A DNA stretch of 64,000 bases from Dysidea avara (Eukaryota; Porifera; Demospongiae; Dictyoceratida; Dysideidae). The DNA is taken from NCBI RefSeq assembly GCF_963678975.1, contig NC_089273.1, positions 34,713,630 to 34,777,629 of the forward strand. Direction: 5' to 3'. Every line of letters starts with the position of its first letter. Positions within the stretch are counted from its first letter, which is position 1. Positions 20,441-64,000 of this stretch are shown here, piece after piece. Made by a program: the position numbers and the translations under genes. The notes beneath the pieces are model-generated. The model was not told the DNA's origin, ran no database searches, and saw nothing but the letters and a program-made list of their open reading frames with translations.

Positions 20441-21260
20441 GTAATCGAATTCTATAATGGAGTAAATAAATTAGCTGAATGCTCTATTAGGGTGACTGTT
20501 CTATTAGAATATCTCGATCGCGCATTTGCTACACGGAGTTGATTTTCGGACCATAACTCAGTGGTTTGTAATCCGATTCTTCTGTACTACTGCAATGACT
20601 TTCTATGAAGATTATTCAAGCTATACAGTGATTTTCAGCTCATTGCTCTAAGCGGTTTGCCTAGTAGGCGTAAAAATTAATACTTTTTTATTCATAAAAA
20701 TTGATGGCGTAATTTTGACACAGGTTGGGTTTTGTGTCATATCTCCATGGTCTTTATCTCGATTCCTTTCAAACCACCGAAAAGGCACTCCTACGATGGT
20801 TACTCCATCTACATAGAAATTTTCAACTCATTCCATGAAGCGGTTTACCCTGTAGGCGTGACAACAAATCAATCTTGTTTTACATGAATAATCGGTCATA
20901 AATCCTGAAACATTCATTGGAGTTGCACCACATTTGATACTAGGATTTGCCTTTGGACTCCCTTTTTGTGTGCCAAATTTCAAGGCGATCAGAGTACGCA
21001 TTTGCATTTTGTAGCAATTTTTGCAAGTGTGCAAAAACACAAAGAAGAAAAATAACGAAAAAAAATTTTAAACTTTGGCAGCTCATATCTCAGAAATGGC
21101 TAGAGTGATTTCCTTCAAATTTGGAATGTAGACTCCCCTAGCTAGCGGGCAACTCTGTAGCAAATTTGGTTCCAATCAGATAAGGGATCACCGAGATACA
21201 AAGGTATGAAAATGACATTTTCTTTCTTCCTGTTAATATGTCCACGGTGTGGCGCGCTGG
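20441..21260. repeat. downstream unit shared by both minisatellite arrays
   Basis: Begins with the CTGTTCTATTAG motif (20496), then AATATCTCGATCGCGCATTT. A TAACTCAGTGGTTTGTAATC block follows. The sequence after array 2 (63862-64000) is homologous. Further on lies low-complexity-free sequence ending near GTGTGGCGCGCTGGCTTCTT. No coding function seen. Confidence 0.6.
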
Positions 21261-21500
21261 CTTCTTGGCTTGCACAACACACTATTGTGTGTCTTGATTA
21301 TTATTGCAGCTTTACAGTGGCCAGCACTGAAGGTCTACCAGCAACACGTTCTACAGTCTTTGTAATCTAACAAATAATAAACTAGAGACTTAAACATTAC
21401 TTAATGGTTGAATGCTACACTAGACAATGCTATCACCACAAAACACTGTGTTGAAGTAATAGAGAGTAAACTAGAGGAACATAAAGTGATTATGTATGAT

Positions 21501-21545
21501 AGTAGTAGTAGCAGTAGCAGTAGCAGTAGCAGTAGTAGTAGCAGT
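21501..21545. repeat. AGT/AGC trinucleotide microsatellite
   Basis: About 15 units mixing AGT and AGC. Confidence 0.95.
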
Positions 21546-22009
21546 GTAGTGTGTGTATTTGTGTATGTACAGTATACTGTCTGATGAGCCTAAGGTGTGA
21601 ATTTATTTGCCCACACTCCATCAATCTGCCTACGGGTTACTAGTACCAAGAGTTCATAATGTTAAGAGTGGGTATTATGAACTCTTGCTAGTACTGCACT
21701 AGCAGGATTGTCCACACTATGGTAGTCTAGTATTCTACTGGGTAAACATAGCCATTTACATGACGTCAAATGCTTTTGTTTTTCGTGTGTTTTGACTGTA
21801 GTGTAGTGTAAAGTGTGTAGTTACCATATCTGTTTGTTTTGTTTTGTTCTTTTGTTAAACCAGGTGCATGTGTGGACGCACTCCTGGTTTACTGAAATTG
21901 TTTTCGTAAAAACTTGTGTGTGTATGTGTGTGTACCTACTGTACCAACCTATGTTTGTTTGTTTGCACACAGCCATGTGAGCAAAATTGTTATTATTATT
22001 TAATTACTA

Positions 22010-23070
22010 GGACTGTGTCACATACAACCAAGTACATATACCAACGTGACAGCCCAGCCCCCTGGTGAGGCTATTAGGTGGCGAAGGCACAATCCCCAAA
22101 TCATCTCAATATGTCACAGTAGTGACAGATATAACACAATAGTGGCATCGTAACTAAAGGCCACCAGTAGCTAAGTGCCAGTACATCACTTTTGTGGTAA
22201 TGGCACAGTGATGTGTACACCGTATATGTATACAAAACATACAGGAGAGAACTATACATTATTGCAGTATTGTGTGCAGCAATACATTATAGGCAACATC
22301 ACCAGATAAAAATTATTAGCCAATATACAGCACAGTATCAACATCAACTAGAGCTAAATAAGGTTCATCAGTGGTGTAGCAATGGCACAGTGATGGGTGA
22401 CACACTATAATTATGCATACACAACTTGTAGAAGATAACTACACAATGCTGTAGGATTATGCAAGCCAGATGAACCAGATAAAGGAAGACAGCCAAGCCA
22501 GCCAGAGCCTAGTAGGCTAATTTGCCAGGTGAAAGAAAAAGATTAAGCACGTATTGAATTGCCTGACACCAACACAAAGGAAGTTCACCATGCCAGCTGC
22601 ACAAGACAAGATTGTTTACTTGTATTTTATATGCAACTGTATTGTAAAGAGCATGGCATATGTTTTAATGTTTTCTTTTATTGTTAATTTACATGAATGA
22701 ATCCACTGGCAACTGGCATGGAGACTGAAAAAGGTTACAAACATAAAAACTTACTTATAATCTTCTTGTTTACGTGTAAAGTGGCCTCTGGCTCTCCTCC
22801 ATGGACATTCGCTAATCTTCTCCTTTGTACAATCTGTAATTAAGCAAGGGTGTGGTACTGGGCATTATATAGAATTACATATATGGTCAAGTCTCAGCAG
22901 GAACAGGTGCAACTATTATATGTTTGTACCTCCGTTTGCAGGCGAATCTATCCCCAGTTAGTTCTTGTCTCTAGGCCTCGTAGTTTTGAAGAACATTAAT
23001 TATTAATTAATTATTTATTTATGACATAATTTTAACCGCATTTCTTATTATTCTTAGTACTTGTTTGTAT
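22010..23070. repeat. direct repeat B, copy A
   Basis: About 1.06 kb. Starts near CTAGGACTGTGTCACATA and ends near CTTGTTTGTATAATTATTA. Highly similar to 29005-30540 in the same orientation. No protein product. The termini lack the TG/CA and primer-site features of LTRs. Confidence 0.8.
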
Positions 23071-23239
23071 AATTATTAACACTTCACAATACACTAAATG
23101 TATCGATGGTCAACCAACAACCTGTGTTGGCAGCCAGAATAAGTTAGTTAAATCCAATACTTAATTACTAAATTACAAAACTGAAATACTGAGATAAATT
23201 GCTAAATAAATCTATGTTATAACAATTGCTACATCTGCA

Positions 23240-25990
23240 ATAAAAAATGATATGTACAGGGATGGGAAAAATGGAGTACGTATGAAGTGTTGGTGTAGAT
23301 ACTTGTAGATGTTGTCTTTTATGACTGATAATGACTAGCTCAGATTGATGGACGGTAATTTATTCTACAGTCTTGATATTCTATTGAAATAGAAGTTCCT
23401 AGTGTAATTGTTGGAAGTATAGACATGATTAGTTCATTATTAGAGGAAGATCTGGTGTTTACAGTGCTAAAAAATACATGGTCATATACATATTAAAATG
23501 GTTGGATGGCTGCTTTAAAACTTTAATGAAAAACATGATGTCATAGAAATCCAGTGTATGCATTAAAGGTAATAGATCTAGTTTGAGCAGATGAGTCCGA
23601 TAGTCAGTGTCATAGTCTTTAAGAATGAATTTTAGTTGCTTGTCGGATGATAGTGTCCTTGGTCAAGTATGGATTCCACAGCTGAGAACAGTAAGTTAAC
23701 TGGAAGAGTTATATATAGAATTTTTTTAGCTTTGACAGGGTGACAGCTACTAAAAGCATGCCTTAGCAGGCCGAAGTATTTATAAGCCTTGGAAGTTATA
23801 TGTTTGTAATGACAGGTTGTCAGAAATTTGTATACTCAAGTCACGATAACTGTGCAGCTGTGGAAGTGTATTGCCATCAACTGAGTTGGAGGTTGGTGAT
23901 TTGTTATCAAAACTCAAGTGGATACACTTGTTGATGCCTAAATGTAAGTCAGAGTCAATGCTCCAGACATATAGCTGATTTAGATCTTGTTGTAAATCAG
24001 GATGATCAGGGGGGTAAAGGATTATTTTACAAAGCTTGGTATCGTCGGCAAACAGAAAGAGATCAGAGAATTGTGTTACTAGTGATAGAACATTTGTGTA
24101 CATTAAAACAGCTGGGGATTGAGGATGATGCTGCCTCGGGGCACACCAGACGACACTGGCAATGGATCAGAGGTAGCACTGCAGACTTTAACACAGTGAG
24201 AGTGATTATGTAGATAGTTGTAAAACCAATTTCAAAGATTTCCAGTTATTCCATAATTTGTTGGTTTAACTAAGAGCTTGTTGTGGGATACTATCAAAAG
24301 CCTTTCAAAAATCAAGAAAGATAGAATCAGTTTGGTGACCTTGAGAGGTAGCTTTGTAAATACTGTTTAAGTATGCCAAAAGTTGTTAGGTAGTGGACCT
24401 ACCAGGTGGGAATCCAAAGTGGCATGTAGTGATGTTATTAAGTACATGAGCAATGATTTTGTTGTAGATAAGAGTTTCTAAACCTTTTGATGTGTTACAT
24501 ACGTAGAAGGGAAATAGGTCTGTAACTCTTTACAGATGATCGATCAGCTGATTACAGGTATACACTGGTACAACTAGATGAAGTTTCCATTCCTGAAGGA
24601 TAACACCACATGCCAAACTTAAGTTGAACAAGTGGTAAAATGGATGGCTGAGTGAGGAAGCACGATATTTAAGAATTTTGGGACTAATAGAGTCAATTCC
24701 TATGACTTTATTAGGATCAAGTAGGCTGATTAAGTATACTTCTTCACTAAAGACCAGTGAGTTCATTTCATTAGGGTGTGAGGTTACATTTGCGCGATGT
24801 GGAGTTGTAGAAGGTAAAAACTGAATAGAAATATTAATTGAAGAGATATGCTCTATAAATGTTGTTGTTGGCTGAAATGGCATCAAGATGGATGGTGGGT
24901 GAGATTGTGGCTGACTTTGTAAAGCTTCTTATGTAACGGTATATTGAAGAATTAGCATAGTTGGTGATGAGTGTAGTTTCATAGTCAGACTTATAGCTGC
25001 AGCCGCACTTTGTTGGAACATGTCTTCAGCATGATTTAATCAGCTTACATCGTGTTCAGAAGGTGAACACTTGTTCTTTCTTCTCAGGGTGTGCAAACAC
25101 TTCGGTAGATGTTCTAGATCTCTGTTAAACCACTTGGGGTATTGTTTATAGCAGATTTGTATTTTAGGAATAAGTAACATTATGGCTTTGTAAATAATAG
25201 ACTTATTCATATACCATGTAACTTCAACATCAGATAAGAACAGATGGTTTACAAAAATGGAGTTGGATATGTAGGCATTCATTCCAAGAAAATCAGCTTT
25301 AAAGAAACCGTAAACATATTGAGAAATACTTTCTGTTGGCTGAGGTCTGACTAGTGATAACTCAAATGTGATAGCATAGTGATCGGATTTGATAGGTAGG
25401 TTATCAGTAGGGCTTACCGAAATACTGTCTATTAGGTTGTCATTGTTAGTAAGGATGAGGTCCAAAGTGTTGCCATGAATATGAGTTGAGTAGGATATTA
25501 ACTGTGATAAATTATGTTCAAAACATGTGTTCAAACCTGCAATGACGTTGCCACAGAGAGTATCCCAGTCAATGTCGGGCAAGTTGTAGTCACCTAATAG
25601 CACAATGTTATATGATTGTTGAAACTGGTAGGGGTGACTTGATAGATTGGATCAGTGGTACAGTAGGATTAGGAGGTATATACACAATACATAGGATTAG
25701 TGCTTGTGAGAGTTCTACTTCAGTGGTGGAGTAGTGGAGGATTTTGCTGACAGTATTATCCCGTACTGCAAGAAGAACCCCACCACCTCTTGAGCCACGA
25801 TAATTACGATGTATAGTATAGTGTGTAGGTAAAATTTTGTTCTCATTATATTGTTGGATAGCCAAGTCTCAGTTACTGCTGTAATGTCAAAATCACAGGA
25901 ATAAATCATAGTATGAAACAAGGATAATTTGTTAACAATACTTCTTATGTTCATATAATAACAGTTAAGTAGTTATAGATTTGCTGCAGG
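23240..25990 (-). pseudogene. LINE ORF2 remnant: endonuclease and reverse transcriptase
   Basis: Read from right to left. An apurinic-type endonuclease starts with NIRSIVNKL and TETWLSNN (about 25950-25860), then RGSRGGGVLLAVRD, GDYNLPDIDWDTLC (25600), HGNTLDLILTNN and SDHYAIT. The reverse transcriptase follows with NKVIGIDSISPKILK (about 24710), SSGVPRGSI (about 24150) and FADDTKL (about 24040), the catalytic aspartates being in FADD. A C-terminal tail in several frames ends near 23245. The order and motifs fit the CR1/L2 group of non-LTR elements, which nick DNA and reverse-transcribe their RNA at the nick. Frames shift repeatedly, so the copy is dead. Confidence 0.88.
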
Positions 25991-26049
25991 TGCTGCAGAA
26001 GAAGATGGCTGATAGGTAGATGTCATTATAAGGAGGGGAGGATCATAAT

Positions 26050-26949
26050 CAGAACGACACAATTCAGAATTTTGGTACTGTCCATAAAGTTTGATCAATG
26101 AAAATGCTTTTTTTTTGGTCAAAGCCTAATTGCATCAATATCCATCTCTCTTTAAGTAGTGCAGATTCAGCTTTCCTTTCTTCGGGTGTCATCAGGTTTG
26201 ATTCGCACTGAAGCTTGGAATGACACAGTGGCTTCTGTGGATCAAAGGAACTTGATGAGAATTAGTGTGGGATGGGAGGCATCAAATTTGTATTTACCCA
26301 ATCAGAAGCAATCTTTGGCTGAATTGGCCTGGATGGGAAGCTCAACTTTGGCAAATTCATTGGTTATTGATTGTAAGTCATTTTCCAGATGATCGGATTT
26401 GGATTTTTTCGGTGGGCTTTCTTTAATACCATACATCACAACGATGTACTTCTTGTCCTTGTAAATAGTAACTAAGAATGTAGGTTTATTGGTAGGGACG
26501 ATGTTGGCAAGTTTAGGTTGAATATTTATAGAGGTTGATCCATCAGGTATCGACACAGTCTCAGTAGTAGGCTCCAATGACTTGACTGAGGTCTGGAGAG
26601 CTGTGATATCACAGTTTCGGTGAGTGAAGGAATTGTGACTTTCAGATCTGAGATGGTTGTGGCATGTTGCTTTAGTTGACAATGTGGACAGTAAAAGGAT
26701 CAAACGGACCTTGTAAACTAGTATACACAGATTTGGGAAGACCTGCTGCATAACCTCTATGCAACCCAGAGGTGCTCTGGCCTTCACAGAAAATAGCATC
26801 ATTACCCTTCTTAGTCTTACTGGAGTCTTGTATAGCTTCTAAACAAATCAGACAAGTACACCCCCTTTCTTCTTAGTTTTCTTTGGCCGAGACAAGTTTT
26901 GTGGTGAATCACCCAGTGTATTATGCTTTAAGCTGGAGGTGGTGTCCAT
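26050..26949 (-). pseudogene. LINE ORF1 remnant with a PHD-like finger
   Basis: ATG at 26949 opens MDTTSSLKHNTLGD, then a basic RPKKTKKKGG stretch. After frameshifts come CLEAIQ, AIFCEG, a GLH stretch and PFYCPHC. This cysteine/histidine spacing resembles the PHD-finger found in some CR1/L2 ORF1 proteins. Downstream at about 26400-26300 is MYGIKESPPKKSKSDH and ANSAKDCF, the usual ORF1 C-terminal region, then IKPD. ORF1 proteins bind the element's RNA. Multiple stops and shifts show decay. It lies just upstream of ORF2, as expected for one element of about 3.7 kb. Confidence 0.75.
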
Positions 26950-29004
<2,055 letters not shown>

Positions 29005-30540: not shown

Positions 30541-30630
30541 TATGAGAACATAAATATTATTATTTATATTAAGACTTACAAACACACTTTCAGGTCACGC
30601 TTGTCCAAACGCCTTTGCTATGGAGGATCA

Positions 30631-31799: not shown

Positions 31800-32290
<491 letters not shown>

Positions 32291-32450: not shown

Positions 32451-32830
32451 TAGGCACCGGCCAATTATGCCAGCATAATTTAAAGCATAGTAGGTGACCA
32501 AAAGCATCAAGCATAATGCCAGCATAATAGGGACGATGTTTGAAAAATTAATTAAATGCGTAATACGCGTGCCTGAAAGAAAGCAAACATTTACTGCCAA
32601 TAGTATTATTAGTGCATTTCATATTTAAAAACATGTAATATAACTTATTAAACCGTTTCTTTGTTGGTTATTTACACTTTGCTGAAATAAGATCGAGATA
32701 CTCTAATAGAGCAGTCAGGAAAGGCTGATATACTCTAATAAAACAGCCAGTTCTAGAGCATAATCTTGATTTTGAAAGCATAATTTTGAGCATAATAGGT
32801 AAAAAATTTGGCATAATTGGCCGGTGCCTA
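32451..32830. mobile_element. hAT-like MITE, family M, copy 1
   Basis: 380 bp. The ends are exact inverse copies, TAGGCACCGGCCAATTATGC, and are flanked by an identical 8-bp duplication ATTGTGAA (32443-32450 and 32831-32838). The interior has several GCATAAT phrases and a reverse-oriented CTGTTCTATTAG-type motif at 32691-32714. Eight-bp duplications are typical of hAT transposons. No transposase encoded. Confidence 0.9.
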
Positions 32831-32838
32831 ATTGTGAA

Positions 32839-37316: not shown

Positions 37317-37617
37317 CAGGGTCGGTGGAGCAGGCCAAAGAGTGAGGGGGCCAGGCCAGCTGTAGGTTGAAGACCAAAAAAAAACAAACAAAAAGGTCAC
37401 AGCCTGTTGACAATAGCTGCTTTTCACCAATTACATCTCCTTATTTATAACTACACATACGTAGCTAAGGAATTTGCTACACTGCTTCTCTGAATACTGT
37501 GACTGCTCTATTAGAGTATCCAGATCCTGACTGTTCTATTAGAGTATCTCGATCTTTTCTTGCAAACAGTGTCCCAAAAAGTGGGGGGGCCATGGCCCCC
37601 CGTCTCCACCGCCTATG
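37317..37617. mobile_element. hAT-like MITE with CAGGGTCGGTGGAG terminus
   Basis: 301 bp. Left end CAGGGTCGGTGGAGCAGGCC; the right end is the inverse of CATAGGCGGTGGAGACGG. Flanked by identical 8-bp GTGGAATT (37309-37316 and 37618-37625). Contains two CTGYTCTATTAGAGTATC motifs in tandem at 37503 and 37531. Confidence 0.85.
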
Positions 37618-44313: not shown

Positions 44314-45045
44314 GTATATGTAGGCAACCCCTACTTTTTTCTGTGATCCCTAATTGAACTTAAAATTCCTATTTTGGTATTAGGCTTGTTGTCTTTTTTG
44401 TAACATTATTATGAATGGTGAACCTGGGCATACTGCATCAAAAGAAAGAATAGTGCCAGAGTTATATACATAATGTTTTTGTCTGAACACGTTGTCCAAC
44501 TATCAACTACTGACTCAAAAGTGAAGTGGCCATTATGCTTTGCTTTTAGCTATGTTCAGCCCATTACACAGTGTTACAAACAAAGCTCTCTGCAGCATTG
44601 GTTTGGGTAGGTTCAGACAACCAAGCACATGATGCACCCTCTCACAATTGCAAAACAATAGGTGCATGTTAAAATGATAATGTTGAAAGTGGAAAATTTT
44701 GAAATTTGAATGATATGAGATTGACTCAGAGGATATTCTGTGGAAATTATGTATCTGAATTAAGCATTGCCATGCATAATAACTACACAAGTAGATGAAT
44801 CAAGCCTTTTAAATAGACCAATGCACTTCATTGTATGTAATAGGTGCAGACAGATATGGATAAATTCCATAGCAGAACCAACTATAATGTATATATCTGC
44901 TGAATGTTCTATTAGAGTAGTTAGGTAACTGCTATTAGAGCATCTCAATCTTGTACACCTCAAATGCTGATCCGGGTACTTGTTGCTGATCCGGATCCTT
45001 AGTCCTCAAATGCTGATCTGGGTCCTTGTTGCTGATCCGGGTTGT
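44314..45045. repeat. fragment of the WDTKED family plus tandem CTGATCCGGGT units
   Basis: 44320-44600 matches the 3' half of the WDTKED repeat in inverted orientation (GTGATCCCTAATTGAACTTA, AAGTGAAGTGGCCATTATGC). At 44965-45045 four GCTGATCCGGGTCCTTGTT-like units occur in tandem. Confidence 0.55.
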
Positions 45046-45328: not shown

Positions 45329-46412
45329 TAGGGACCAGTCTATTTTGCTTTTTTTTCACCTATTTTTCTTTCCAGCAATTCTTTTATTTTTCACCTATTA
45401 TGCTCCATATTTTGTTCAAGAATTATAAATTTTGCTCAGCACTGATCTTTGTTAATTGAATATTTCCAAGTGCAAAGCTACAGTTTTGCCTTAAAGTGAC
45501 TGTTCTATTAGACTATCTCGATCAACAATTACTTCTAACATGTAAAGCAAGAAGCTAGCTAATATTGCTTAACATAATTATGTGACCGGATTTCACATAA
45601 CAAGGCTTCCACACACACAAAATCAAACTTACGATTTTACCAGAAATGGATTGCTGGTCTAATGCACTATCATATTTCACACTGTACTTCCTTCAGCACT
45701 GACAAATCATATTTCACACTGTACTTCCTTCAGCACTGACAAGTCTGGTTTCTGTAGCAGCTTTCTTCCGACCCTGTCAAAGCCACGAGTGTGAGATTGG
45801 CACCATTAAATGGCCATGGCTTTGTGATAATGGTGTGTACTGAGCTGGGACTTCACGGAGAGCTCGCCAATAGTGTTCTCAGTCAATTTGGAGTAATTTG
45901 AGGGCCATGGAGGGCCATGGAGAGCCCAAACTTGGCCTCTGGATTCCAATCGTCTTCTTACTTCATTTTATACTCGTATATTAAGACCACCGTCCAACAG
46001 GGCAAATTTTGGGTGTCAGAAATGTATACACCCACTCAGTGATAGCTAGTGAATAGATGAACAATTGGTGCAAATTTTGCTTGCACAGCTGTAGGCACTG
46101 GGAAGTTATTACACAATGATTCCTTAAAATCGCCATATCTCCTAACAAAGCTTTGTGCGTCGAATCCTTGATTTGTCAAATTCAGTCACTGTTTTATTAG
46201 GGTATCTCGATTGTCACTTGTTGTTCCTGTAACAATTAGCTATGCATTTTCGATGTTTTAGCGCGTCTGACTGTTCTATTAGAGTATCTCGATCTTTTGT
46301 GAAATTTTTATGTCCACTTCACAAAAATTACACCTATTATGCCATCATTTTGCTCATTGCTTTTACCCACCCGTTATGCCAAAATTTTGCCGGCAAAATC
46401 GACGGTGCCCTA
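45329..46412. mobile_element. hAT-like MITE, family M, copy 2 (1084 bp)
   Basis: Starts TAGGGACCAGTCTATTTTGC and ends with the inverse of TAGGGCACCGTCGATTTTGC. Flanked by identical 8-bp CCTCAGAC (45321-45328 and 46413-46420). Contains three direct motifs at 45500, 46189 and 46271, and CACCTATTATGC phrases shared with the other family M members. Coding capacity absent. Confidence 0.9.
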
Positions 46413-47444: not shown

Positions 47445-47901
47445 TAGGGACCCGCCGATTATGCGCATTATTTTACCTATTATGCTATGCAGCACCGCTC
47501 AAAAATTTACCTATTAAGCTTAAATTAATGCTCAATATTTACCTATTATGCTCAAATTATGCTCAATATTTTTACCTCAGTTCCCATGTTTTTCTAATAA
47601 CTTTGCATTTTATGGAAAAGCAGTAAGTGGTTGAAGCACAGACTGTAAATCCTTGCTTGTCAAAATACATGTCACAGAAAAGATCGATATACTCTAATAG
47701 AACAGTCAGCTACCTGATAATTTTATTAGAGTTACTGACTGTTCTATTAGAGTATATTGATCTTTTTGTTGGTTATGTATTTTGATAAGCAAGGATTTAT
47801 AGCATTGCACAAGTTTTCTGCCTATTATGCTAGCATTATGCTCAATGCTTTCAGGCACCTATTATGCTTATTATTATGCCAGCATAATCAGCGGGTCCCT
47901 A
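47445..47901. mobile_element. hAT-like MITE, family M, copy 3
   Basis: 457 bp. TAGGGACCCGCCGATTATGC at the left is matched by the inverse of TAGGGACCCGCTGATTATGC at the right. Flanked by identical 8-bp GCTGTAGT (47437-47444 and 47902-47909). The motif occurs twice, inverted at 47682-47705 and direct at 47739-47762, so the two copies face each other. GCTCAATATTTACC phrases are repeated near the left end. Confidence 0.92.
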
Positions 47902-49263: not shown

Positions 49264-52200
49264 TTAGAGACCAATAAGGTTACTGTACCTCATTGCATCA
49301 TCATCATCATCATCACTGCTATCATTAATAGCAAAATATTGATGCCTCTTGTAATGGAGTACCTTCTTGATAACAGCAGCAACACATAACACAATTAGTG
49401 GAAATATCACCAACACTAGTGCTAACTCAGTAGTGGCAAACTGTAGGAAGTCAAAACTACTAATAATGACTGCTATTAACATCAACTGTAGGAGTAGCCC
49501 ATCAAATATATTTAAGAATTTATTTTTGTATGGTTGAAGCCACAAGTGAACTGTAGCAATTACAACACAAGTCAGTAGTAGGTAAAACAACATGCTTTCA
49601 TAGATATTATGACCAAGGAGCACAATAAACATGATTACTTGCCGACAAATCAGATAATATGAAGCAAACCAACTATATTTGACCTTGTAGCAACCTTGAA
49701 ATTGATCTAGTATTGGCTTCAATCTGATAAAGTTAATCTTTCTTTTAAGAAATGGCTCCAGCAACAAAAGCAATGGCAGACCAATTCCTATCACCAGCTC
49801 ACAGATGATTGCGACACTACCATACACCACATGTCTACCTTGAAAATACTTGATGTTAGGAGATGAGTATGTATATAGATTATCTGCATCAGTAAATTTT
49901 AGAGGCCTCAGCAACTGTAGGGAAGTGGAGGCTAATGATGTATACGCTAACAACAGAAGAAGGCAAAAAACACGAATGATACATCGACTAATCAATTTAG
50001 ACACTTTTCTGGAGCATTTTGCAGCTACCACAAAACCATATAATAAAACTGAAACAGCACCAGCATGTGAGTAATGGATAAATAATTGATCAATTCCATT
50101 CATTTCTCTTGTCAAACAAAGATTCCCAAGAAATTGAGGATTTAATTGTGCAATTCCTGATAATATATTTATGAACTGAGCTGCACCACTAGATATGTAG
50201 GGATTATTACTCAGCAATATATTCACCATACTGTAGTAGTAGATTAATCCATATAAGTATCCTGAGGACAGTTTAAAGTCGGAGTACATCAATGTAAACA
50301 CACCAACTATCATAACAATCCAATAGAAACCTGTCAACACTACCACTAACACTGTCATAGCAGCACTACAGTGGTCTTCACTGATACAGTCATTAGAGTC
50401 ATATGCTAGAGTGAATCCTGGACTGCATTGTCCACAAGCAGGACCAGACCTGCCATGTTCACATTGATCATTTATCCTTTCAGGCAGTTTAAAGTAACCT
50501 TCTCTGGTCGTCTTATGATCAACAAACCCACAATACTCACTGGGGCACAATGATGTAGTTGCTCTTCCATTGACTCTACCAAACCAGTAACCTCTTTTTA
50601 TCTCATTATAGTCATCATAACACTCCACCACATCATGATAGTAACAAACACAACCTTTAGATGTTGTACTGTAAACATATCCAGGATGATCAGAACATGG
50701 GACAAACTCTATTACAAGTGTCACCTCTACTTGATGGTAATAAAAATTTAAGTTAGACAATAATTGTATTGTGACATTTGTATCGTTAGTCACTGTTTCT
50801 CCAATGAAAATTACATTAAGTGGTGATGCATTATCAATTACTAGTTCTGTGCTGATCAATGTCAAAATACCACAATCAACACATTGCAAATAAAATTTTG
50901 TAGTATCTGCAGGCTTTTCAAAGTAATCTAAAACAACGCCAAAAAATCTTACTACTCTACCTAGAATTTTGTTATCAATAAAATACACACCATTTGAAAA
51001 GGTAGTGCTACCACCAAACAATTTCAATTGTTTTGGAGAAGTGACCACTGGAAAATGTGTTATGTTTAACTGAGTGTAATTGTAGTCAATGGGAATATGA
51101 ACATAAGAACCATTGATGAATTGTATGTAGTTGAATTGATATGGCACATACATGAGCGATGAGGAGTTTCTATAATTTAAATTTAAGATGCAATAATTTG
51201 GTACACTGAAATATACAGAATTATCACCATATCCCAATTTAGAGTTTATAAACTGAACACTTGCATTACCAATATGGATATTTAAGACTTGATAATTTCC
51301 CTCACAACCTATGCTGAAGTCCACGTATATTGCACCACCATAATAGACAGCTGAATTGTCAATAAACTGTATCACTGCTCCATCACTAATACTAATGCTA
51401 CTGGTTTGATCGATGTATAAAGCTCCTCCCTTGTCAGCACTATTTTCTTTGAAAAATGTATTTCCAGAGAGTGTAATACGAGAGTTTGTAGAAATGAAGC
51501 ATGTACCAATATTGTTAGTGAAATTTGATGTAGCAATACTGATTTGTGCTGGAAAGTCTGCATTTACATTAACGTAAACAATACTATAGACAGCTTTGTT
51601 TAAATGAAACACACTAAACATAATAGAAATAACAAACCATCAATATAAATAGCTGCACCATGAACAGATGTATTGTTGAGGAATAAGCATTCTCTTAATG
51701 TTATCACACTTGGAGCAGGATTCTTAATATACACTGTACCTGCACTATTGTAGTGGCATACATTTGAGGTTACGTTAACTTTATTCATAGTTACATTAGT
51801 AATAATACAAGGTGACCGAATTGATATAATTGATGCTATTGGAGAATTGTATTTACCACTCAACAAGCTATTATTTGAAATAACGACATCATTAAAATAC
51901 AAAGAGCCCCGAAAGCAATAGTCTACAGAGTAACGAATAAAAGTTAAATCTATTATGGGAGAATGATAATTTGTATTGCTAGTAAACACTGTGTCTTTGA
52001 CTACAACTGCTATATCACCCCTTGTGTGGAATTTTGCACTTAGTACAGTACCAGTATTGCTACTGAAAACCGAAGATAAAATCATTAGATCCATATTTCC
52101 ATTTTCTGAATCAAGACCAATGTCAAACAATGTTCCACCTTCAACCAAGACATGGTTATTATAAGCAATAAGTTCATAAAGTGTTAATGATGATTCATAA

Positions 52201-52973
52201 AAGTTGGTTAAATCAATGTTTGCTACCTGTGCATTATTGAAGAATTGTGTTTTTGATATTGTAATATTCACGGATATTTGGAAAGATGAACATAGTATCA
52301 ACAAAGCATATCCATCAAAATCGTCATCATACTGGAGCTCTCCATAATATCCATTATCATAGAAATGACATTGATGAATCGTTACATTTGCAGTTGTATT
52401 ATCAAAGCAATCAAGAGTTAATCCACCAACATCTCCATATGGAAATTGTTTATTTCGTTTGTTAGATAAAAACTTACATTGATCAACTATTACATTTCCG
52501 CTTATACCAAATAAGTTAACTGCCATAATCCGAGAATGCTGAAACACACAATCTGCTATCATAATATTGCTGATATATCTAAATGATATAATTGGTAGGG
52601 TTTCCTTATGATCAGGGCCACTTTTGTCCCATGTGATCCCCTTTATTATGACACCACTGCACTGGTAACACTCCACACTTCCTCTATTGTTACACATGAT
52701 GGTAGCACCATTACCAACTATTGCAATGTTTGTAAGGTGACCTGACCCCATTGTGACTTTGCTGTGCAGTGTAACTGACTGTGATGTGATGTTGATTACA
52801 GTGTTACTGGTCATACTGTGTAAAGCAGTGGATAGTGAAGAACATGGACATTCTCCCTTCACACAACATTTAATACTATCACTACCAGTAGTGTTGATGG
52901 TAATCACTTTATTGTTGACATGTTGACTGGTGAGGATTATCAGATATATCAAACCATAGGTAATGATGTTCAT
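49264..52973 (-). CDS. secreted-type beta-helix, cysteine-rich, multi-pass membrane protein (two coding exons)
   Basis: Exon 1 is 52973-51638 and exon 2 is 51593-49264, joined over a 44-base GT-AG intron. Together they give 1221 residues from ATG at 52973 to TAA. Residues 1-20 (MNIITYGLIYLIILTS) look like a signal peptide. From about 25 to 640 short hydrophobic/Asn-rich turns recur (GNGATIMC, NNTSVHGAAIYID, ENSADKGGALYID), typical of a right-handed beta-helix with many N-glycosylation sites. A cysteine-rich stalk (about 745-855) holds GYWFGRV, CPSEYCG and GPACGQCSPGF. About nine membrane segments span 857-1190, including RPLKF and LQPYKNKFLNIFDG loops, and an acidic cytosolic tail has SSDDDDDD. 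The architecture suggests a cell-surface receptor or transporter-like protein of an expanded sponge family; ligand and activity are unknown. The membrane region somewhat recalls TRP-like proteins. It is the only convincing intact gene here. Confidence 0.87.
51594..51637 (-). other. 44-base intron
   Basis: Starts GTTTGT after GATG and ends AAAG before CTGTC. Removal keeps the beta-helix frame open (IYID then AVYSIV), while two other nearby AG sites would give immediate stops. The very short length and the weak pyrimidine tract are notable. Confidence 0.75.
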
Positions 52974-54860: not shown

Positions 54861-54883
54861 TCATCTTTTGCAGATTATACAAA

Positions 54884-56454: not shown

Positions 56455-56527
56455 ATGTCACTGTCGGATGAGCACAGTGGCAATACGAATGTGGAAGGAC
56501 TGAAAATGATTCAGCGCATCGTAGTGG
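56455..56527 (+). CDS. putative short first exon
   Basis: ATG at 56455 opens MSLSDEHSGNTNVEGLKMIQ, then RIVVG, and stops at a consensus donor GTGAGT (56528), phase 1. CpG content is locally raised. No downstream partner exon was identified before the repeats begin. Unknown product. Confidence 0.3.
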
Positions 56528-56917
56528 GTGAGTTCCTTGTTTGTATGTTGAAAGCTTATATACTGGCAGATAGCTTACTCATTGCCAATTACTAAAATCT
56601 GTTTTCCGAAGCGATCAGATAAACGCTTCATGAGATATGCTTGTTTGTAACCGCCTATGAAAATTGGCAAAAGTATTGTGCATTTTCAATTGGTTTTTTT
56701 AAATCAAATCCAGTTTTCTGGATTATGCGGGTTTAAGGGTTGAAGAAATTCTATGACATTCCTAGACATTTTGGTGCAAAAATCCCACAAGTTTGGATTC
56801 AATCTGCACCCAAATGTACATACATATAATGCAGTGACTATACACATCATGAATGATTATATGCAAAAGTGCCTTCAGTACAATCCTAAAAGCTTCTAAT
56901 AAATTGTTACAAAATTA

Positions 56918-56920
<3 letters not shown>
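56528..56920. other. no gene recognised
   Basis: AT-rich sequence with no repeat partner noticed. Confidence 0.3.

Positions 56921-56956
<36 letters not shown>
56921..56956. repeat. AT microsatellite
   Basis: Eighteen AT units, immediately left of a WDTKED-family copy. Confidence 0.95.
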
Positions 56957-56961
<5 letters not shown>

Positions 56962-57030
56962 GGGATTTTCTACTGCCTGCTTGCCTGCCTGCCTGATATC
57001 TTCAGGCAGGCGTAGCTCAGTAACAGCTAA

Positions 57031-57556
57031 TAGTGCGTTTACACTAGCAGTTGGGCATGGTACGGCACAGTACAGCACGGCACGGTATGCTTAATTTTGC
57101 TAGTGTAAACAGGTATCGATCCGAGCCAAACAGTTACGTGCCGGGCTCGGCTGGCCCTGCTACTTCAACCATGCTGGCTCGATATGGTACGGCACGGTAG
57201 ACAAATTGAAACAAACCTAGCTATATCCTTGGCTGCTGTATGTAAATACGATGGTTGGCCAAACGTGAAACAACATCCAGTTACCACGTTCGACTTGAAA
57301 TGAGCTGTCCACCGAGCGGTAGCCGCTGATATTGTCCCTCAAACGGATTGCTGATAACTTGTACGACATCAACAGCTTGAAACGAGCTTTAAAATGGCAA
57401 GGGCATCTCGTAGGACGATACTTTAGCCATCACATGCTTATGTATAAACTTTCCAAGCATAGTTATTTCCTTACCAATCTAAATGAGCACTTAAAACGTA
57501 GCGTACCGTACCATGCTGTACCGTACCGAGCTGGAGCTACTAGTGTAAACGCACTA
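57031..57556. mobile_element. PIF/Harbinger-like MITE with TAA duplication
   Basis: 526 bp. Left TAGTGCGTTTACACTAGCAG, right end inverse with one change. Flanked by TAA (57028-57030, 57557-57559). The homologous site at about 33760 has a single copy of the target (AACAGCTAAGGCT). Inner sides hold GGTACGGCAC / GTACCGTACC phrases. The 3-bp TAA duplication suits PIF/Harbinger. No transposase. Confidence 0.82.
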
Positions 57557-58006
57557 TAAGGCTATGGGCTTGATATTTTCACTGTTTGAAGTTGCTTTGT
57601 CCTGAGACGTGCATACCACAGTACGTACAATGCATGCATCATGGACTTACCTTTGTCCTCCTTTGTGTCCCATTTCTTTTTGCTGACAGTTCAATGTGTC
57701 GATTCACGGTAACATGATGCATGGCTTTCCTACAGTACATTTATAAACGGGAATTATCCATATTTTCTGTGATAACTGGATTGATTGCAGAGGCAATTCT
57801 AGCACTGCTCTTCATTTGTAACGATGTGTAACGAGTTGGACATACGTGTAGCTGAAAGCGAAGCATAATGGCCACTACACCTTTGAGGCAGTAATTGATA
57901 GTTTATATTTTTGATAGCTGGGGGCACGCAAATTGTCATATTTTTGTGGTGAATGAATTGTTGTAGAGGCACTTCTTCTACTGTTTTTCATCTGTAGCAC
58001 TGTGTA

Positions 58007-58261
58007 CAGGGAATTTAAGACTTCTTGCAATTTCATGCGAAATGCGCAGTGTGGTTGCGCATGTATGTCTGTCGTATTTTGCTAATCTCAAAGTGAAATA
58101 ACCTATGCTACGACCCTGTTAAAGAAATTTGTCACATGTGCAACAGTATGAGGCACGATATGAGAATTCACCATCATTGTGGCACCAGATAAATTGCTTA
58201 TAAAAACATGGATGCATACGCATTCACACTTACAAAATTGCAAGAAGTGTTAAATTCCCTG
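58007..58261. mobile_element. Tc1/mariner-like MITE with TA duplication
   Basis: 255 bp. CAGGGAATTTAAGACTTCTT at the left and its near-inverse at the right, continuing GCAATTT on both sides, flanked by TA. The related tandem units without the insertion read CTGTGTAACGGG across the site. Confidence 0.85.
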
Positions 58262-58439
58262 TAACTGGCAGAACATAACTGAAACTAAAGCATAATGGCC
58301 ACTGTACTTTCGAAGCACAGTATTTGATAGATGGGGTGTGTGTTCAGACGAAAACATTAATTCTGGTGCCATCCTTTCTTTTGATGCGGTATGCATGGGT
58401 TCACCGGTCATAATAGTGTTACAAAAAAAAGGAAACAAA

Positions 58440-58652
58440 CAAGTTTAAGGAAAAATTTGGAATTTTAAGTTCGATTAGAGATCACAGAAAGAAAATACGG
58501 AAACAAGGGAGGTCGCCTGTACCTGCAGATATACTAGTGAACGTTTAATCCCTAATTCAGTCTACACTAGTATATCTGAACTCCCTTGTTTCTCTACTTT
58601 TTTTCAATGATCCTTAATCAAACTTAAAATTCCCAAGTTTCCCTTATACTTG
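58440..58652. repeat. 213-bp imperfect palindrome
   Basis: Arms share AAGTTTAAGGAAAAATTTGG-type, TTAGAGATCA and GGAAACAAGGGAG blocks in inverse, and the inner AGATATACTAGTG/CACTAGTATATCT pair. Equivalent in position to 34334-34628. Confidence 0.82.
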
Positions 58653-59279
58653 TAATAAAGTTTTACACATAGCTATAAAAACTATTAAACAGAGAAACTA
58701 TGTAGCCTTCACCAGGAATTTTGTGATTCCAACACCTACAGTATGAGACACAGGTAAGTTCCTTTGTTACACTACATATGTGCAGATATTCAATATTAGG
58801 TTATTATAAAACGAAACACTACAATGAAGAAGATTTTGACATGGTGTTATTCACTAAAAGAATATATGTACGTACATAGCTATCGAATTCTAAGTAAAAT
58901 TCGTTGCTTTTGCAATCAATAGAATTTGCCACCTCATTTCAGCTACTTTGCACAGTGTTCCTATTTAGCAAAGTGCTAACTAAATAGTGATCACAAATTT
59001 TCCTGCAAACTTGAAAAACTCTATTGTAATACAGTGCCTAATTCTATTGCAAGCATGCCAAATCCAATTGCCAAGGCAATGCTGTTTCAAAAACAACTAA
59101 TTCTATTGCAAAAATGGACAAAGATGATTGCAAAGCTGATGAGTTTAATGGAGAAAATTTGTAAGAATTCCAGTCTTTAAACATTGAAAATATGTAAGCC
59201 TTAATTGCAATTTGAAAATGTATAAACAGACTACATATATCCTCATTACACGTACTTACATACATTATCTACACTTGAA
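58653..59279. other. mostly unexplained; possible small MITE
   Basis: TTTTGCAATCAATAGAATTT near 58909 and AATTCTATTGCAAAAA near 59099 are roughly inverted and may bound a ~200-bp MITE. A strong donor-like GTAAGT lies at 58754. No gene established. Confidence 0.35.
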
Positions 59280-59500
59280 TGTGTACCTTAAACTAGAGGA
59301 CATCTCCATAATCTGGAAACTTAGTAATAGTCCAAAAGTATCTCTTAGCACACAACCGACCTGGACAAAATCAAGACACCTTGATAATCAGTAATTTAGG
59401 ATAGTACTGAGGTGTCCTTAATACACAGGTTTCACTGCACACAGTGGTTCAAGGTATATGATTATGACTGTCCAAAAATTTACATTATGCAGCAAACCCA
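59280..59500. repeat. dispersed repeat, partial copy
   Basis: GAGGACATCTCCATAATCTG through ATGATTATGACTGTCCAAAA matches 53335-53505. Confidence 0.65.
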
Positions 59501-59519
59501 CTAATAGCTGCTACTCTAC

Positions 59520-59955
59520 TTACACTCAAACCTCTCTAATCCGATGCTCAATGGGAGCTATAAATTTTGCTGGATTGAGGTTGTTGGATTATCAAGTCAC
59601 CTCTGTAATCCAACATTGTACAATATCTAGAAGTATGTCGATTATACAGCAAATTACAGTTAAAACAGATCACACGGTGTTTTTAACATGAATTAACTTG
59701 CAAGTATTACAGTTTTTTTTTTCTGTTACTATAAACCAATTAAATACTTCAGTTGCTTAATGCTGCTATTAATCTCTGTCGGATTACAAAAGTCAAAAAC
59801 AATGACAAGTTTAGGGAATCAGGATTGAGAGTACAGAGGTACCAGATTACAGAGGTATTTGTTCTATACAAGAGTGTTGTTAAATGCCATTATGGTCAGG
59901 ATTCCGGATTACACAGGTATCTGTTCAACTGTACTACTGTTGAGGGGTACGTATA
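59520..59955. repeat. AATCC-rich repeat with pogo-like ends
   Basis: The left CTCTCTAATCCGATGCTC and a right part with GGATTCCGGATTACACAGGT are roughly inverted; inner TCTGTAATCC phrases recur. Resembles the ATTATCC MITEs at 5844 and 16340. Weak. Confidence 0.35.
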
Positions 59956-61172
59956 ATGAACCAAAATCATTCACAAAATTTCAAATTTTAAAATATGGGT
60001 GCCCATATTTCATCTTTCAAAGAACATTTCACTTTGTAAAATCCCAGATTTTAAGTCTGTAAAATTTTGTAAATAAATTTACAAAATTTGTAATTTTAGA
60101 TGTCCATAAACTCCCATTACATCTGTTCGATTGTCAACTCAGTTCGAAAATCTTTCAAATGTACAGAATTTCAGGCAATATTTTACCGTTCAGAAATAAA
60201 TTCAGATGTGACCTACGAAATTTCAGGTCGTCACCTGCCCCTCAACTATTGTTTTACCATAGACATGCCCATACATGGGTTGGTTACGTCACATTTTAAT
60301 ACTACACAATTAACTCGACAAATAAACAGTCATGTCGACAGTGCAATGTAAATCTACAGGCTTCTTTGTATGTCTCACCAACTCTTCAAGGGTAGTGAAA
60401 TTCCTCGATGTGTTTTCAGTAAATAATCACCCTCTCACTGTTGGAGTCTATTGAACTTTCCTAGGACCTCGCCAACCCAGATTTCGTAGGATTTATCCTG
60501 GTACCTCCTACACTCGCTAATTCTGAAATCCGTCACAAGTGTGAGTAGGGGTGAGTGACAGTAGTATGCGAAGTGGGTGAGTAATGTCCGAGGTAATATC
60601 TGATTAATTATTTTATATAAGCGCTTAATTATAGACTCAACAAAACGATAGGACCAACCGACCCGAGATCCGACCAACTGATGTGCCATACTGCTACTGT
60701 GATTCTACCACCGAGAAGCAACTGAATTGATATCATCTCCTTAACGGTGAGCCACTGTTTTGGAGTAGAATCGAGTCGTTTATCAGTTGAGTTGTTGCAA
60801 TGATCAGGCGTATAAAGTCATCAGTTGGGTGTAAAATAGAGTTGTTTCTTGCGTTTCCTTTTAGATTTCCCTTTAGAAGTAGGTTTTTCTCACCTAGATG
60901 CACTAATTTTACTGTACGTGCCGAGGTACGTGCTCGATCTCACTCTTAAACAAAATTTTATGATTTGTTTCATGTACATACCTCATAATCGAGTGTTGTG
61001 TGCATGTGAAAAGATGTAAACTTAAAATTACTGTTGTCTATAAAGATGAAGTGCATGTCAAAATGTGTTTAAGTCAGGTGAATTAGTTGAACATTCCGCT
61101 TTTGTCGCTTTGTGTTGACATATCAAAACTCGTGTCAAATTAACCCATACATTACAATCTTCCGTAAAATAT
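59956..61172. other. no gene recognised
   Basis: Short phrases of AAATTTTGTAAA occur at 59970-60100. The ORF 60435-60689 on the - strand (SECRRYQDKSYEIWVGEVLG) looks somewhat protein-like, but it is not recognised and has no partner exon. Confidence 0.35.
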
Positions 61173-61174
61173 TA

Positions 61175-61491
61175 TCTAATCCAAAACAGCCAAGCTGTAA
61201 AAAAAGTGTGCGGCCCTCAGAAAGGCTATGGTGAAAAAAGATGTGAAATCCAAGGTGGCGGCCAAGAAATGGCTGTGATGGTAGGTTAATGGTAAAAATT
61301 TTAATAATGACAATTCAGGTAAATTTTGTGAAGCGGCACAAAAATTCACCTGAATTGTTATTAAATTTTTTACCATTAACCTACCATCACAGCCATTTCT
61401 TGGCCGCCACCTTGGATTTCACATCTTTTTTCACCATAGCCTTTCTGAGGGCCGCACACTTTTTTTACAGCTTGGCTGTTTTGGATTAGAT
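61175..61491. repeat. 317-bp near-perfect palindrome (foldback MITE)
   Basis: Arms of about 150 bp are nearly identical inverses. Each holds CCAAAACAGCCAAGCTGTAA, a GGCCCTCAGAAAGG block and AAATGGCTGTGATGG, and closes on an AATTCAGGTGAATTT-type core. The two overlapping 66-codon ORFs on opposite strands are mirror copies of each other, not genes. A decayed copy is at 15590-15875. Confidence 0.95.
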
Positions 61492-61642
61492 TTCATTTCT
61501 TTTTGTATTTGTATACCCCAAAGACGGCCTATGGCCAGCTTTGGGACTTTTTTAACCTATGTTTTTTTTCTTTACTACAGGAAGAAGTAGATGCACTTTA
61601 ATATTTTATCAGTAAATGTACAAATTATATATATAATACATA

Positions 61643-61744
61643 TGTGACCGGATTTGCGAAAAGGGGCCTTCCACACACATCCAATTTTCCAACTTTGACA
61701 ATTGATAACTTCAGATTGGAAAGAGCTATAATTGCCTTGAAATT
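61643..61744. mobile_element. left terminus of a TGTGACC-type element leading into array 2
   Basis: TGTGACCGGATTTGCGAAAA then GGGGCCTTCCACACACA. A close relative is at about 45585-45620 within the MITE 45329-46412. The right end lies beyond the window or was lost. Confidence 0.5.
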
Positions 61745-63850
61745 TGGGCAGTGGTGATTTCTTTGCAGCTAAACTCTTTACAAGGTAATTTCTTCTAGCT
61801 GATCTCTCTACAGGGAGATTTGTTTGTAGCTGAACTATCTACAAGGTAACTTCTTCTAGCTGATCTCTCTACAGGGTGATTTGCTTGTAGCTGAATTCTG
61901 TACCGGTGATTTGTTTGCAGCTGAGCTCTTTACAGAATGGTTTCGTAGCTAAACTCTCTAAAAGGTAACTTCTTCTAACTGATCTTTCTACAGGGCAATT
62001 CTTTGTGGCTGAATTTTCTACAGGGTGATTTCTTTGCAGCTGAACTCTCTACTTGGTGGTTTCTTTGTAGCTGAACTATGTACAAGGTAATTTCTTCTAG
62101 CTGACCTCTCTACAGGGTGATTTGTTTGTAGCTGAATTCTGTACAGGTGATTTGTTTGCAGCTGAGCTCTAAACAGAATAGTTTGTTTGTAGCTGAACTG
62201 TCTACAAGGTACCTTTTCTAGCTGATGTCTCTACAAGGTCACTAGTTTGTAGCTGAACTCTCTACATGGTGGTTTCTTTGTAGCCTAACTCTCTACAAGG
62301 TAACTTCTTCTAACTGATCTTTCTACAGGGCAATTTGTTCGTGGCTGCATTTTCTACAGGGTGATTTCTTTGCAGCTGAACTCTCTACATGGTGGTTTCT
62401 TTGTAGCTGAAATCTCTACAAGGTAACTTCTTCTAGCTGATCTCTCTACAGGGTGATTTGTTTGTGGCTGAACGATCTACAAGGTAACTTCTTCTAGCTG
62501 ATCTCTCTACAGGGTGATTTGTTTGTAGCTGAATTCTGTACAGGTGATTTGTTTGCAGCTGAGCTCTTTACAGAATGGTTTTGTAGCTGAACTCTCTAAA
62601 AGGTAACTTCTTCTAACTGATCTTTCTACAGGGAAATTTCTTTGTGGCTGAATTTTCTACAGGGTGATTTCTTTGCAGCTGAACTCTCTACTTGGTGGTT
62701 TCTTTGTAGCTGAACTATGTACAAGGTAATTTCTTCTAGCTGACCTCTCTACAGGGTGATTTATTTGTAGCTGAATTCTGTACAGGTGATTTGTTTGCAG
62801 CTGAGCTCTTTAAAGAATGGTTTCTTTGTAGCTGAACTCTCTACAAGGTAACTTTTCTAGCTGATGTCTCTACAAGGTCACTAATTTGTAGCTGAACTCT
62901 CAACATGGTGGTTTCTTTGTAACTGAACTTTCTACAAGGTGACTTCTTCTAGCTGATCTAACACAGGGTGATTTGTTTGTAGCTGAACTCTCTACAAGGT
63001 AACTTCTTCTAGCTGAACTCTCTACAAGGTAACTTCTTCTAGCTGATCTCTCTACAGGGAGATTTGTTTGTAGCTGAACTCTCTAAATGATGGTTTCTTT
63101 GGAGCTGAACTCTCTACAAATTAACTTCTTCTAACTGATCTCTCTACATGGTGATTTGTTTGTAACTTAATTCTGTATACAGTAGGTGATTTGTTTGCAG
63201 CTGAGAGCTTTAAATAATGGTTTCTTTGTAGCTGAACTCTCTCAAGGTAACTTCTTCTAGCTGATGTCTTTACAGGGTCACTAGTCTGTAGCTGAATTCT
63301 CTACATGGTGGTTTCTTTGTAACTAAACTCTCTACAAGGTAACTTTCTAGCTCATCTTTCTACAGGGTGATTTATTTGTAGCAGCTGAATTCTGTACAGG
63401 TGATTTGTTTGCAGCTGAGCTCTTTAAAGAATGGTTTCTTTGTAGCTGAACTCTCTACAAGGTGACCTCTTCTAACTGATCTTTCTACAGGGTGATTTGT
63501 TTGAAGCTGAACTCTCTACAAGGTAACTTCTTCTAGCTGATCTCTCTACAGGGAGATTTGTTTGTAGCTGAACTCTCTACATGATGGTTTCTTTGTAGCT
63601 GAACTCTCTGCAAGGTAACTTCTTCTATTGATCTCTCCACAGGGCGATTTGTTTGTAGCTGAACTCTCTACATGGTGGTTTCTTTGTAGCTGAACTGTAC
63701 AAGGTGATTTTTTCTAGTTGAACTATCTCTTTCCACAGTTGCATGAACTCCCTACAAGGTAGCTTCTTCTAGCTGATCTCTCTATAGGGTGACTTGTGTG
63801 TAGCTGATCTCTATACAGGTTTCTTATTTCTAGCTGATCTCTTGAATTTT
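61745..63850. repeat. minisatellite array 2 with higher-order repeat
   Basis: Units of about 30 bp near GGTGATTTGTTTGTAGCTGA plus ACTCTCTACAA alternate with GGTAACTTCTTCTAGCTGAT plus CTCTCTACAG. A longer block starting CTTTGTGGCTGAATTTTCTA recurs at 62001 and 62640, a period of 639 bp. GTACAGGTGATTTGTTTGCA recurs about six times. No coding frame is maintained. Confidence 0.95.
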
Positions 63851-64000
63851 CTTCAGGGTGACTGCTCTATTAGGATGACTGCTCTATTAGAGTATCTCGA
63901 TCTCGCACTTGCTGCACCAAGTTGGATTTCGTGTTATAACTCCGTGGCTTTAAGTCTGATTCTTCTACACCATTGATGAGCCTTTCTAAGATGATTACTC
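63851..64000. repeat. downstream unit shared with array 1
   Basis: Two CTGCTCTATTAG motifs (63862, 63879) then AGTATCTCGATCTCGCA and a TAACTCCGTGGCTTTAAGTC block, collinear with 20480-20640. Cut by the window edge. Confidence 0.7.

What the first reader, a model, noticed from the sequence alone, without database searches (positions are those of the whole stretch)
20496..63902. A short motif dispersed in both orientations across unrelated repeats
CTGTTCTATTAGAGTATCTC followed by GATC, or a version with a few changes, is at 20496, 32691 (inverted), 37503, 37531, 45500, 46189, 46271, 47682 (inverted), 47739 and 63879. Weaker versions are at 5893, 15418, 16382 and 44900. It lies inside three family M MITEs and a different hAT-like MITE, and at the downstream edge of both minisatellite arrays. 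One short conserved sequence in otherwise unrelated repeats suggests a shared functional site, for example a transposase-binding or recombination site, a regulatory element, or a tiny mobile unit of its own. Function is inference.
Basis: partly seen in the sequence, partly recalled or inferred. Interest (0 to 1): 0.8.

Follow-up and report, generated by a model that had tools for sequence, protein, structure and literature searches.

The report
Sponge motif shared by unrelated transposons
A 29-letter DNA motif occurs in about 58,000 near-copies in a sponge genome, inside several different kinds of jumping gene, and is likely a docking site for an unidentified DNA-binding protein that would help those elements multiply.

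Summary
All 14 reported sites are there, plus three more. One representative of each of 32 flank contexts shows a conserved block TGACTGYTCTATTAGAGTATCTCGATCTT, 29 bp, with sharp edges. Hosts include hAT-type miniature transposons with exact 8-bp target duplications and at least four kinds of terminal repeat, and a Helitron-like element that carries the 31-bp minisatellite. The motif has a polar grammar: 17-bp half-copies stand upstream of the full copy (18,605 tight pairs genome-wide), and units close behind a full tail are rare (352). In Helitron-like copies found by their flanks, 11 of 11 with the junction carry the motif, and it diverges about 4 to 5 times less than neighbouring DNA. It is unrelated to the minisatellite unit and shows no target duplication of its own. 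I read it as a multi-site protein-docking module kept by DNA transposons of several superfamilies. The protein, and any effect on transposition or chromatin, are inferred. Exchange of the module between elements by recombination, without function, remains the main rival.

The parts
20476..20492 (+). half-unit directly upstream (offset -17)
20493..20519 (+). full motif, 1 mismatch; end of minisatellite array 1 of the Helitron-like element
18688..20403 (+). 31-bp minisatellite array 1
18677..21298 (+). Helitron-like element copy 1; right end hairpin ACACACTATTGTGTGT then CTTGA|T; left end not resolved (18677 is where the alignment to copy 2 begins)
61753..63728 (+). 31-bp minisatellite array 2
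61175..64000 (+). Helitron-like element copy 2, cut by the window end; 5' end A|TCTAATC
63876..63902 (+). full motif (C variant), preceded by a half-unit
32451..32830 (.). hAT-type MITE, family M, exact TSD ATTGTGAA
32691..32717 (-). full motif inside that MITE
37317..37617 (.). hAT-type MITE, CAGGGTCGGTGG termini, exact TSD GTGGAATT
37500..37526 (+). upstream copy (offset -28)
37528..37554 (+). full motif, 0 mismatches
45329..46412 (.). hAT-type element, family M, exact TSD CCTCAGAC; longer than its 479-bp relative L030 by an interior insertion
45497..45523 (+). full motif, 1 mismatch
46186..46212 (+). degenerate motif copy
46268..46294 (+). full motif, 0 mismatches
47445..47901 (.). hAT-type MITE, family M, exact TSD GCTGTAGT
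47682..47708 (-). full motif, left arm of an inverted pair
47736..47762 (+). full motif, right arm of the inverted pair
44901..44950 (+). half-unit (44901) and degraded full motif (44924) in a copy of the CAGGGGCAGATC hAT family
5893..5919 (+). diverged copy without the tail, in a MITE that looks pogo-like by eye
16379..16436 (+). two diverged copies without the tail, same pogo-like family
15415..15441 (+). motif copy, 4 mismatches, host unclassified

Best explanation
The 29-bp motif is likely a docking site for a sequence-specific DNA-binding protein, carried in tens of thousands of copies by DNA transposons of different superfamilies. Shown: a sharply bounded core TGACTGYTCTATTAGAGTATCTCGATCTT; 17-bp half-copies in the same orientation upstream and very few units close behind the full tail; in a listed sample, spacers mostly of 0, 4 or 8 bp with varied letters; presence in several hAT-type MITE families and in a Helitron-like element; stronger conservation than its surroundings. 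Inferred: a protein binds the half-copies and the full copy together as a platform; elements that keep the platform would leave more copies (through germline activation, replication timing or recruitment of a host factor), so selection among source copies keeps the motif; the module would have been passed between element families by recombination inside nested or neighbouring copies. Which protein, and which of these advantages, is not known.
For: 58,480 matches to the 27-mer (<=3 mismatches), control 0; 53,249 matches to the 19-mer (<=2 mismatches), control 11. In 32 contexts, one representative each, the 29 columns carry 0.6-2.1 bits and most columns outside are below 0.2; the last two columns (TT) were not part of the match criterion. 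51 of 71 strong copies have an upstream half-unit at 14-45 bp (0.8% expected each), 0 have one downstream within 80 bp; by context, 16 of 27 with a strong copy. Genome-wide 18,605 half-unit-then-unit pairs against 352 tail-then-unit pairs, controls 0. Spacers in the 100 places listed of 18,605: 0 bp 32, 4 bp 41 (10 sequences), 8 bp 16 (9 sequences), all others 11. Pairwise divergence of the motif 0.049 against a mean of 0.188, 0 of 101 windows as low (11 copies); 0.054 against 0.281, 0 of 250 windows as low (9 copies). In one hAT family the half-unit, which was not part of the search pattern, diverges 0.029 against 0.173, 6 of 395 windows as low. Precedent: MITEs CERP2 and CELE2 carry an m1m2 motif pair tied to HIM-17 (PMC9757741, abstract and passages).
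Against: No binding, chromatin or expression data were available. The half-unit next to the Helitron-like motif is not unusually conserved (0.23 against a window mean of 0.28). Four-bp spacing could be inherited from few ancestral pairs, and the 100 spacers come from one end of one contig. The 71 strong copies are not independent (20 of 78 clusters are one family), and downstream counts were made from the best copy of each cluster. Conservation could also come from gene conversion. 11 of 27 contexts have no upstream half-unit. No reason is shown why hAT and Helitron-like elements would need the same site.
Confidence: 0.45

Rival explanations
1. The module is a passive junction: recombination or template switching during repair of transposon excision gaps uses it as homology and so copies it between elements, without any protein recognising it.
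For: One-sided homology that stops at the motif in some pairs: 9 upstream-only and 52 downstream-only of 2775 pairs, for example L027 and L057, two elements that look like family M by eye, with alike left and different right interiors. Another interior block is shared with elements that lack the motif.
Against: The downstream-only pairs listed (25 of 52) are all Helitron-like copies, whose upstream side is the changing minisatellite. Right interiors of one hAT group are short and G-rich and may be homologous but not alignable. It does not predict the fixed polarity or a tail only on the last copy.
Confidence: 0.25
2. The 29-50 bp module is a tiny mobile element of its own that inserts into other repeats.
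For: At one locus (L038) the 38 bp next to the motif were matched by none of the 39 other scored copies of the neighbouring repeat, which begin 39-49 bp into the query (40 of 283 candidates scored). Very many contexts.
Against: No target-duplication signal: mean best match 1.9 against 2.04 for shuffled pairs in 32 contexts. 11 of 11 flank-ascertained Helitron-like copies with the junction carry it, so it is ancestral there. No empty site was seen, but none was searched for genome-wide; the downstream flank of L038 was never searched (tool busy).
Confidence: 0.13
3. All hosts descend from one ancient element; only the motif is still recognisable.
For: Three hAT groups have related termini (CAGGGGCGGATC type, by eye), and one group shares its left interior. 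Old diverged copies can inflate the count of contexts.
Against: At least four hAT terminal-repeat types and a Helitron-like element with different ends and no matching flanks at the sensitivity used. Helitrons and hATs are not held to share a cut-and-paste ancestor (general knowledge).
Confidence: 0.1

Closest known systems
HIM-17-bound m1m2 motif pairs in Caenorhabditis MITEs CERP2 and CELE2 (PMC9757741; abstract and passages seen)
   Same: Paired short motifs in fixed orientations and spacings, spread in thousands by MITEs, with a host binding protein.
   Different: There the motifs lie in the inverted repeats of two MITEs the paper calls related; here one longer polar module lies in several hAT types and a Helitron-like element, in far more copies, binder unknown.
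Loop-anchor motif within Mutator terminal repeats in placozoans (PMC12221973; passages seen)
   Same: A motif carried by a DNA transposon in an early-branching animal, tied to genome architecture.
   Different: One transposon type and a motif in its terminal repeat; I saw no loop data for this sponge.
CENP-B box (consensus recalled, no call)
   Same: A 17-bp protein site found in otherwise unrelated repeats.
   Different: The letters do not match.
Minisatellite-bearing Helitron-like elements such as DINE-1 (recalled; PMC2374699 seen in a search listing only, where it is called a MITE)
   Same: Non-autonomous element with internal tandem repeats, like one host here.
   Different: The shared motif itself is not part of that definition.

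Membership tests
hAT-type MITE (hosts in the window) | 8-bp target site duplication | tested here: met
   Exact in four window elements. Among all motif loci 11 of 78 (10 elements) against 11 of 234 control points; but lengths 5 and 6 are also raised (9 and 7 of 78 against 11 and 8 of 234), so the bulk test alone is weak
hAT-type MITE (hosts in the window) | short terminal inverted repeats starting YAGGG or similar (recalled) | tested here: met
hAT-type MITE (hosts in the window) | mobilised by a hAT transposase | not tested
   no transposase search was made
Helitron (array-bearing host) | 5' TC end after an A | tested here: met
   14 of 15 TCTAATC ends among 16 pattern hits are preceded by A; some are inner inverted copies
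Helitron (array-bearing host) | 3' hairpin near a CTRR end, followed by T | tested here: inconclusive
   16 of 16 copies shown end in a hairpin-like stretch then CTTGA and T, not CTRR; 3 of 9 flank-ascertained copies do not align at that end
Helitron (array-bearing host) | RepHel protein in an autonomous relative | not tested
   not searched
HIM-17-like motif spread by MITEs | motif carried by two or more MITE families | tested here: met
HIM-17-like motif spread by MITEs | bound by a host factor at promoters | not testable with these tools
   no ChIP or accessibility data
CENP-B box | NTTCGNNNNANNCGGGN (recalled) | tested here: not met
   by inspection of the consensus
Self-mobile mini-element | target duplication at the motif edges | tested here: not met
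   no signal in 32 contexts; decay of old copies could hide one
Self-mobile mini-element | empty sites | not tested
   no genome-wide empty-site search was made
Part of the 31-bp minisatellite | sequence homology to the repeat unit | tested here: not met
   p 0.26 to 0.96 in 12 comparisons

The most novel reading that the evidence does not exclude
A sponge has a genome-wide protein-docking code, one polar module repeated about every 9 kb and amplified independently by cut-and-paste and rolling-circle-type transposons: a non-CTCF architectural or replication landmark written by mobile DNA.
Probability: 0.25. Interest if true: 0.92.

Novelty: new variant of a known kind. Interest (0 to 1): 0.74.

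Why it matters
Transposons are known to spread binding sites, but normally one family or related families spread a site. Here one long module is shared by elements with different ends and, if the Helitron-like label holds, different transposition chemistry, at about one copy per 9.4 kb. If a protein reads it, it would be a defined, testable regulatory or architectural element in an early-branching animal. If none does, it would show that short DNA can pass between transposon superfamilies.

Tried and rejected
Homology of motif and minisatellite unit: looked plausible by eye, rejected. Known RNA family or tRNA: none in the window. A conserved hairpin: only the inverted pair at 47670-47775 folds unusually well (z -12); the six other stretches folded do not. 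Matches in viral and bacterial contigs: L001-L012 were judged chance, with 4 or more mismatches to the 27-mer or none in reach and no sponge-like surroundings; searches returned no locus. The motif in print: literal searches found 0 papers and 3 papers whose titles are unrelated, not opened; topic searches listed nothing that by title and abstract start describes it. Minisatellite letters: 0 papers. Dysidea avara with genome, repeat and transposable: 0 papers. Rows dropped: L022 and L024 (overlap L021, L023) and L001-L012; copies with more than 5 mismatches left out and neighbours within 120 bp merged before the 78 clusters; 3 of 78 left out. In one search, of 18 rows, 4 are internal repeats 184-186 bp into the same elements and lack the motif, and 3 begin beyond the junction; neither kind is in the 11.
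Full report
What was claimed.

Check. All 14 are there, with three more. The 20-mer has 14 matches at <=3 mismatches against 0.03 in shuffles; the 27-mer has 17 at <=8 mismatches against 0.15. With motif copies masked, 200-bp flanks in the window fall into seven groups (best 60 rows seen): the two array edges; the family M hAT-type elements; a second hAT-type MITE (37317-37617); a MITE family that looks pogo-like by eye (5893, 16379, 16410; its ends were not tested); and 44901/44924, 15415 and 46186. The fetched relative L030 carries a copy at the place of 46186 and aligns to both halves of the window element, so 46186 is a third, degenerate copy inside family M and six groups remain; 44901/44924 lies in a copy of another hAT family. 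In the whole-window self-comparison, alignments between groups cover the motif and its half-units and stop there (E <= 1e-4).

Organism. The protein at 49264-51621 has 344 hits; the named ones among the best 120 are from Dysidea avara, at up to 71% identity. I infer D. avara.

Genome-wide. The 19-mer CTATTAGAGTATCTCGATC with <=2 mismatches occurs 53,249 times (control pattern 11), the 27-mer with <=3 mismatches 58,480 times (control 0), about one per 9.4 kb, equally on both strands (29,356 and 29,124). Twenty 10-kb stretches from contigs C1 and C2, taken at 3-Mb steps without regard to the motif, hold 49 copies at <=7 mismatches and 31 clusters at <=5 mismatches in 18 contexts.

Anatomy. The window and L013-L062 (without two overlapping loci), 348,532 bp, hold 78 clusters that fall into 32 flank contexts after masking motif and half-units. 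This count is by single linkage on 150-bp flanks; old copies of one family can split, so 32 is an upper estimate. With one representative per context, 29 columns carry 0.6-2.1 bits: TGACTGYTCTATTAGAGTATCTCGATCTT. The first 27 were the match criterion; the final TT was not, and the drop on both sides is the finding. Outside, most columns shown are below 0.2 bits; the exceptions, -16 (0.54), -11 (0.27) and -8 (0.22), fit the half-unit at -17. The motif is polar: 51 of 71 strong copies have a same-strand 17-bp half-unit (TGACTGYTYTATTAGRG) 14-45 bp upstream and none has one downstream within 80 bp, counted from the best copy of each cluster; by context, 16 of 27. Genome-wide, a half-unit core followed within 8 bp by a unit occurs 18,605 times, a full tail followed within 8 bp by a unit 352 times (the 100 listed use a few recurring spacers). 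The two patterns are not matched letter for letter. Of the first 100 listed of the 18,605 pairs, spacers are 0 bp in 32, 4 bp in 41, 8 bp in 16 and other lengths in 11; the 4-bp class has 10 sequences and the 8-bp class 9. These 100 lie in the first 3 Mb of one contig, so the preference is a lead.

Hosts. Four window elements have termini and exact 8-bp duplications of the hAT kind. Fetched loci add others: CAGGGGCGGTGG (L016), TAGGGCTGGGCGG (L020, L032), CAGGGCCGCCCA (L029, 191 bp), TAGGCACC and TAGGGACC (L027, L030), all with exact duplications; L014 (duplication in a C-rich run) and L036 (one mismatch) are weaker. Such ends with an 8-bp duplication were found at 11 of 78 motif clusters (10 elements) against 11 of 234 control points, but duplications of 5 and 6 bp were raised as well (9 and 7 against 11 and 8), so the bulk test alone does not prove hAT hosts; the individual termini do. 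For most of the 78 the host was not delimited. The largest context (20 of 78) is the element with the 31-bp minisatellite. Its 5' end reads TCTAATC after A in 14 of 15 such ends; its 3' end is a hairpin-like stretch followed by CTTGA and T in the 16 copies shown; the two ends do not look like inverted repeats of each other. I call it Helitron-like; its end is not CTRR and no RepHel protein was sought.

Conservation. Searching the window and the 20 stretches with the Helitron-like downstream flank, without the motif, gave 18 rows: 11 copies whose junction is present, 4 internal repeats of the flank and 3 that begin later. All 11 carry the motif with 0-3 mismatches. Mean pairwise divergence is 0.049 in the motif against 0.188 in downstream 27-bp windows, none of 101 as low. 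With nine copies over 779 bp it is 0.054 against 0.281, none of 250 as low; there three copies are truncated or displaced at the far end, which inflates the mean (lowest window 0.116). The half-unit beside it is not conserved in this way (0.230). In the CAGGGGCAGATC hAT family, the half-unit, which was not part of the search pattern, diverges 0.029 against 0.173, with 6 of 395 windows as low; six of those eight copies come from loci fetched by the motif.

What it is not. It is not related to the minisatellite unit, not a known RNA, and shows no target duplication of its own. One-sided homology at the motif exists but is limited: 143 pairs share both flanks, 52 only the downstream, 9 only the upstream, 2571 neither. 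At L038 the 38 bp next to the motif were not matched by 39 other scored copies of the neighbouring repeat (40 of 283 candidates scored); the other flank could not be searched because the machine stayed busy.

Reading. Sharp edges, polarity, spacer preference, retention in different transposon kinds and low divergence fit a multi-site docking platform for a DNA-binding protein, kept because it helps the elements that carry it. Binding, the protein and the benefit are inferred. The nearest precedent is HIM-17 and the m1m2 pairs of CERP2 and CELE2 (PMC9757741, abstract and passages); a placozoan loop-anchor motif lies in Mutator terminal repeats (PMC12221973, passages). Passive spread by recombination is the strongest rival.

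Noticed in passing
window 49264-52973 (-): Two adjoining long frames; the first belongs to a large protein family (344 hits, best 120 listed; the named ones are Dysidea avara).
   Followed up: partly
L016, L042 (2213-2246), L045 (4531-4609), L015, L034: A second interior block (about TAGCTGTAAGTTGAAGACC, A-run, GGTCACA) recurs in elements with different termini, with or without the motif; the L042 element looks hAT-like by eye.
   Followed up: partly
window 45583, 54886, 61645; L036 interior: TGTGACCGG-type ends recur; in L036 they form an inverted pair of about 250 bp nested in a hAT-type element.
   Followed up: no
window 61187/61467; L019, L025, L048: The 5' part of the Helitron-like element is itself an inverted pair of TCTAATC..CAGCCAAGCTGT ends about 280-290 bp apart.
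   Followed up: no
window 47670-47775: Inverted motif pair in the middle of a MITE forms a near-perfect 32-bp stem (z -12).
   Followed up: partly
L030 1329, 1411, 1493: Three motif copies (1, 7 and 0 mismatches) spaced exactly 82 bp apart in a family M element.
   Followed up: no
window 32017-32215: CTGC tetranucleotide run of about 50 copies.
   Followed up: no
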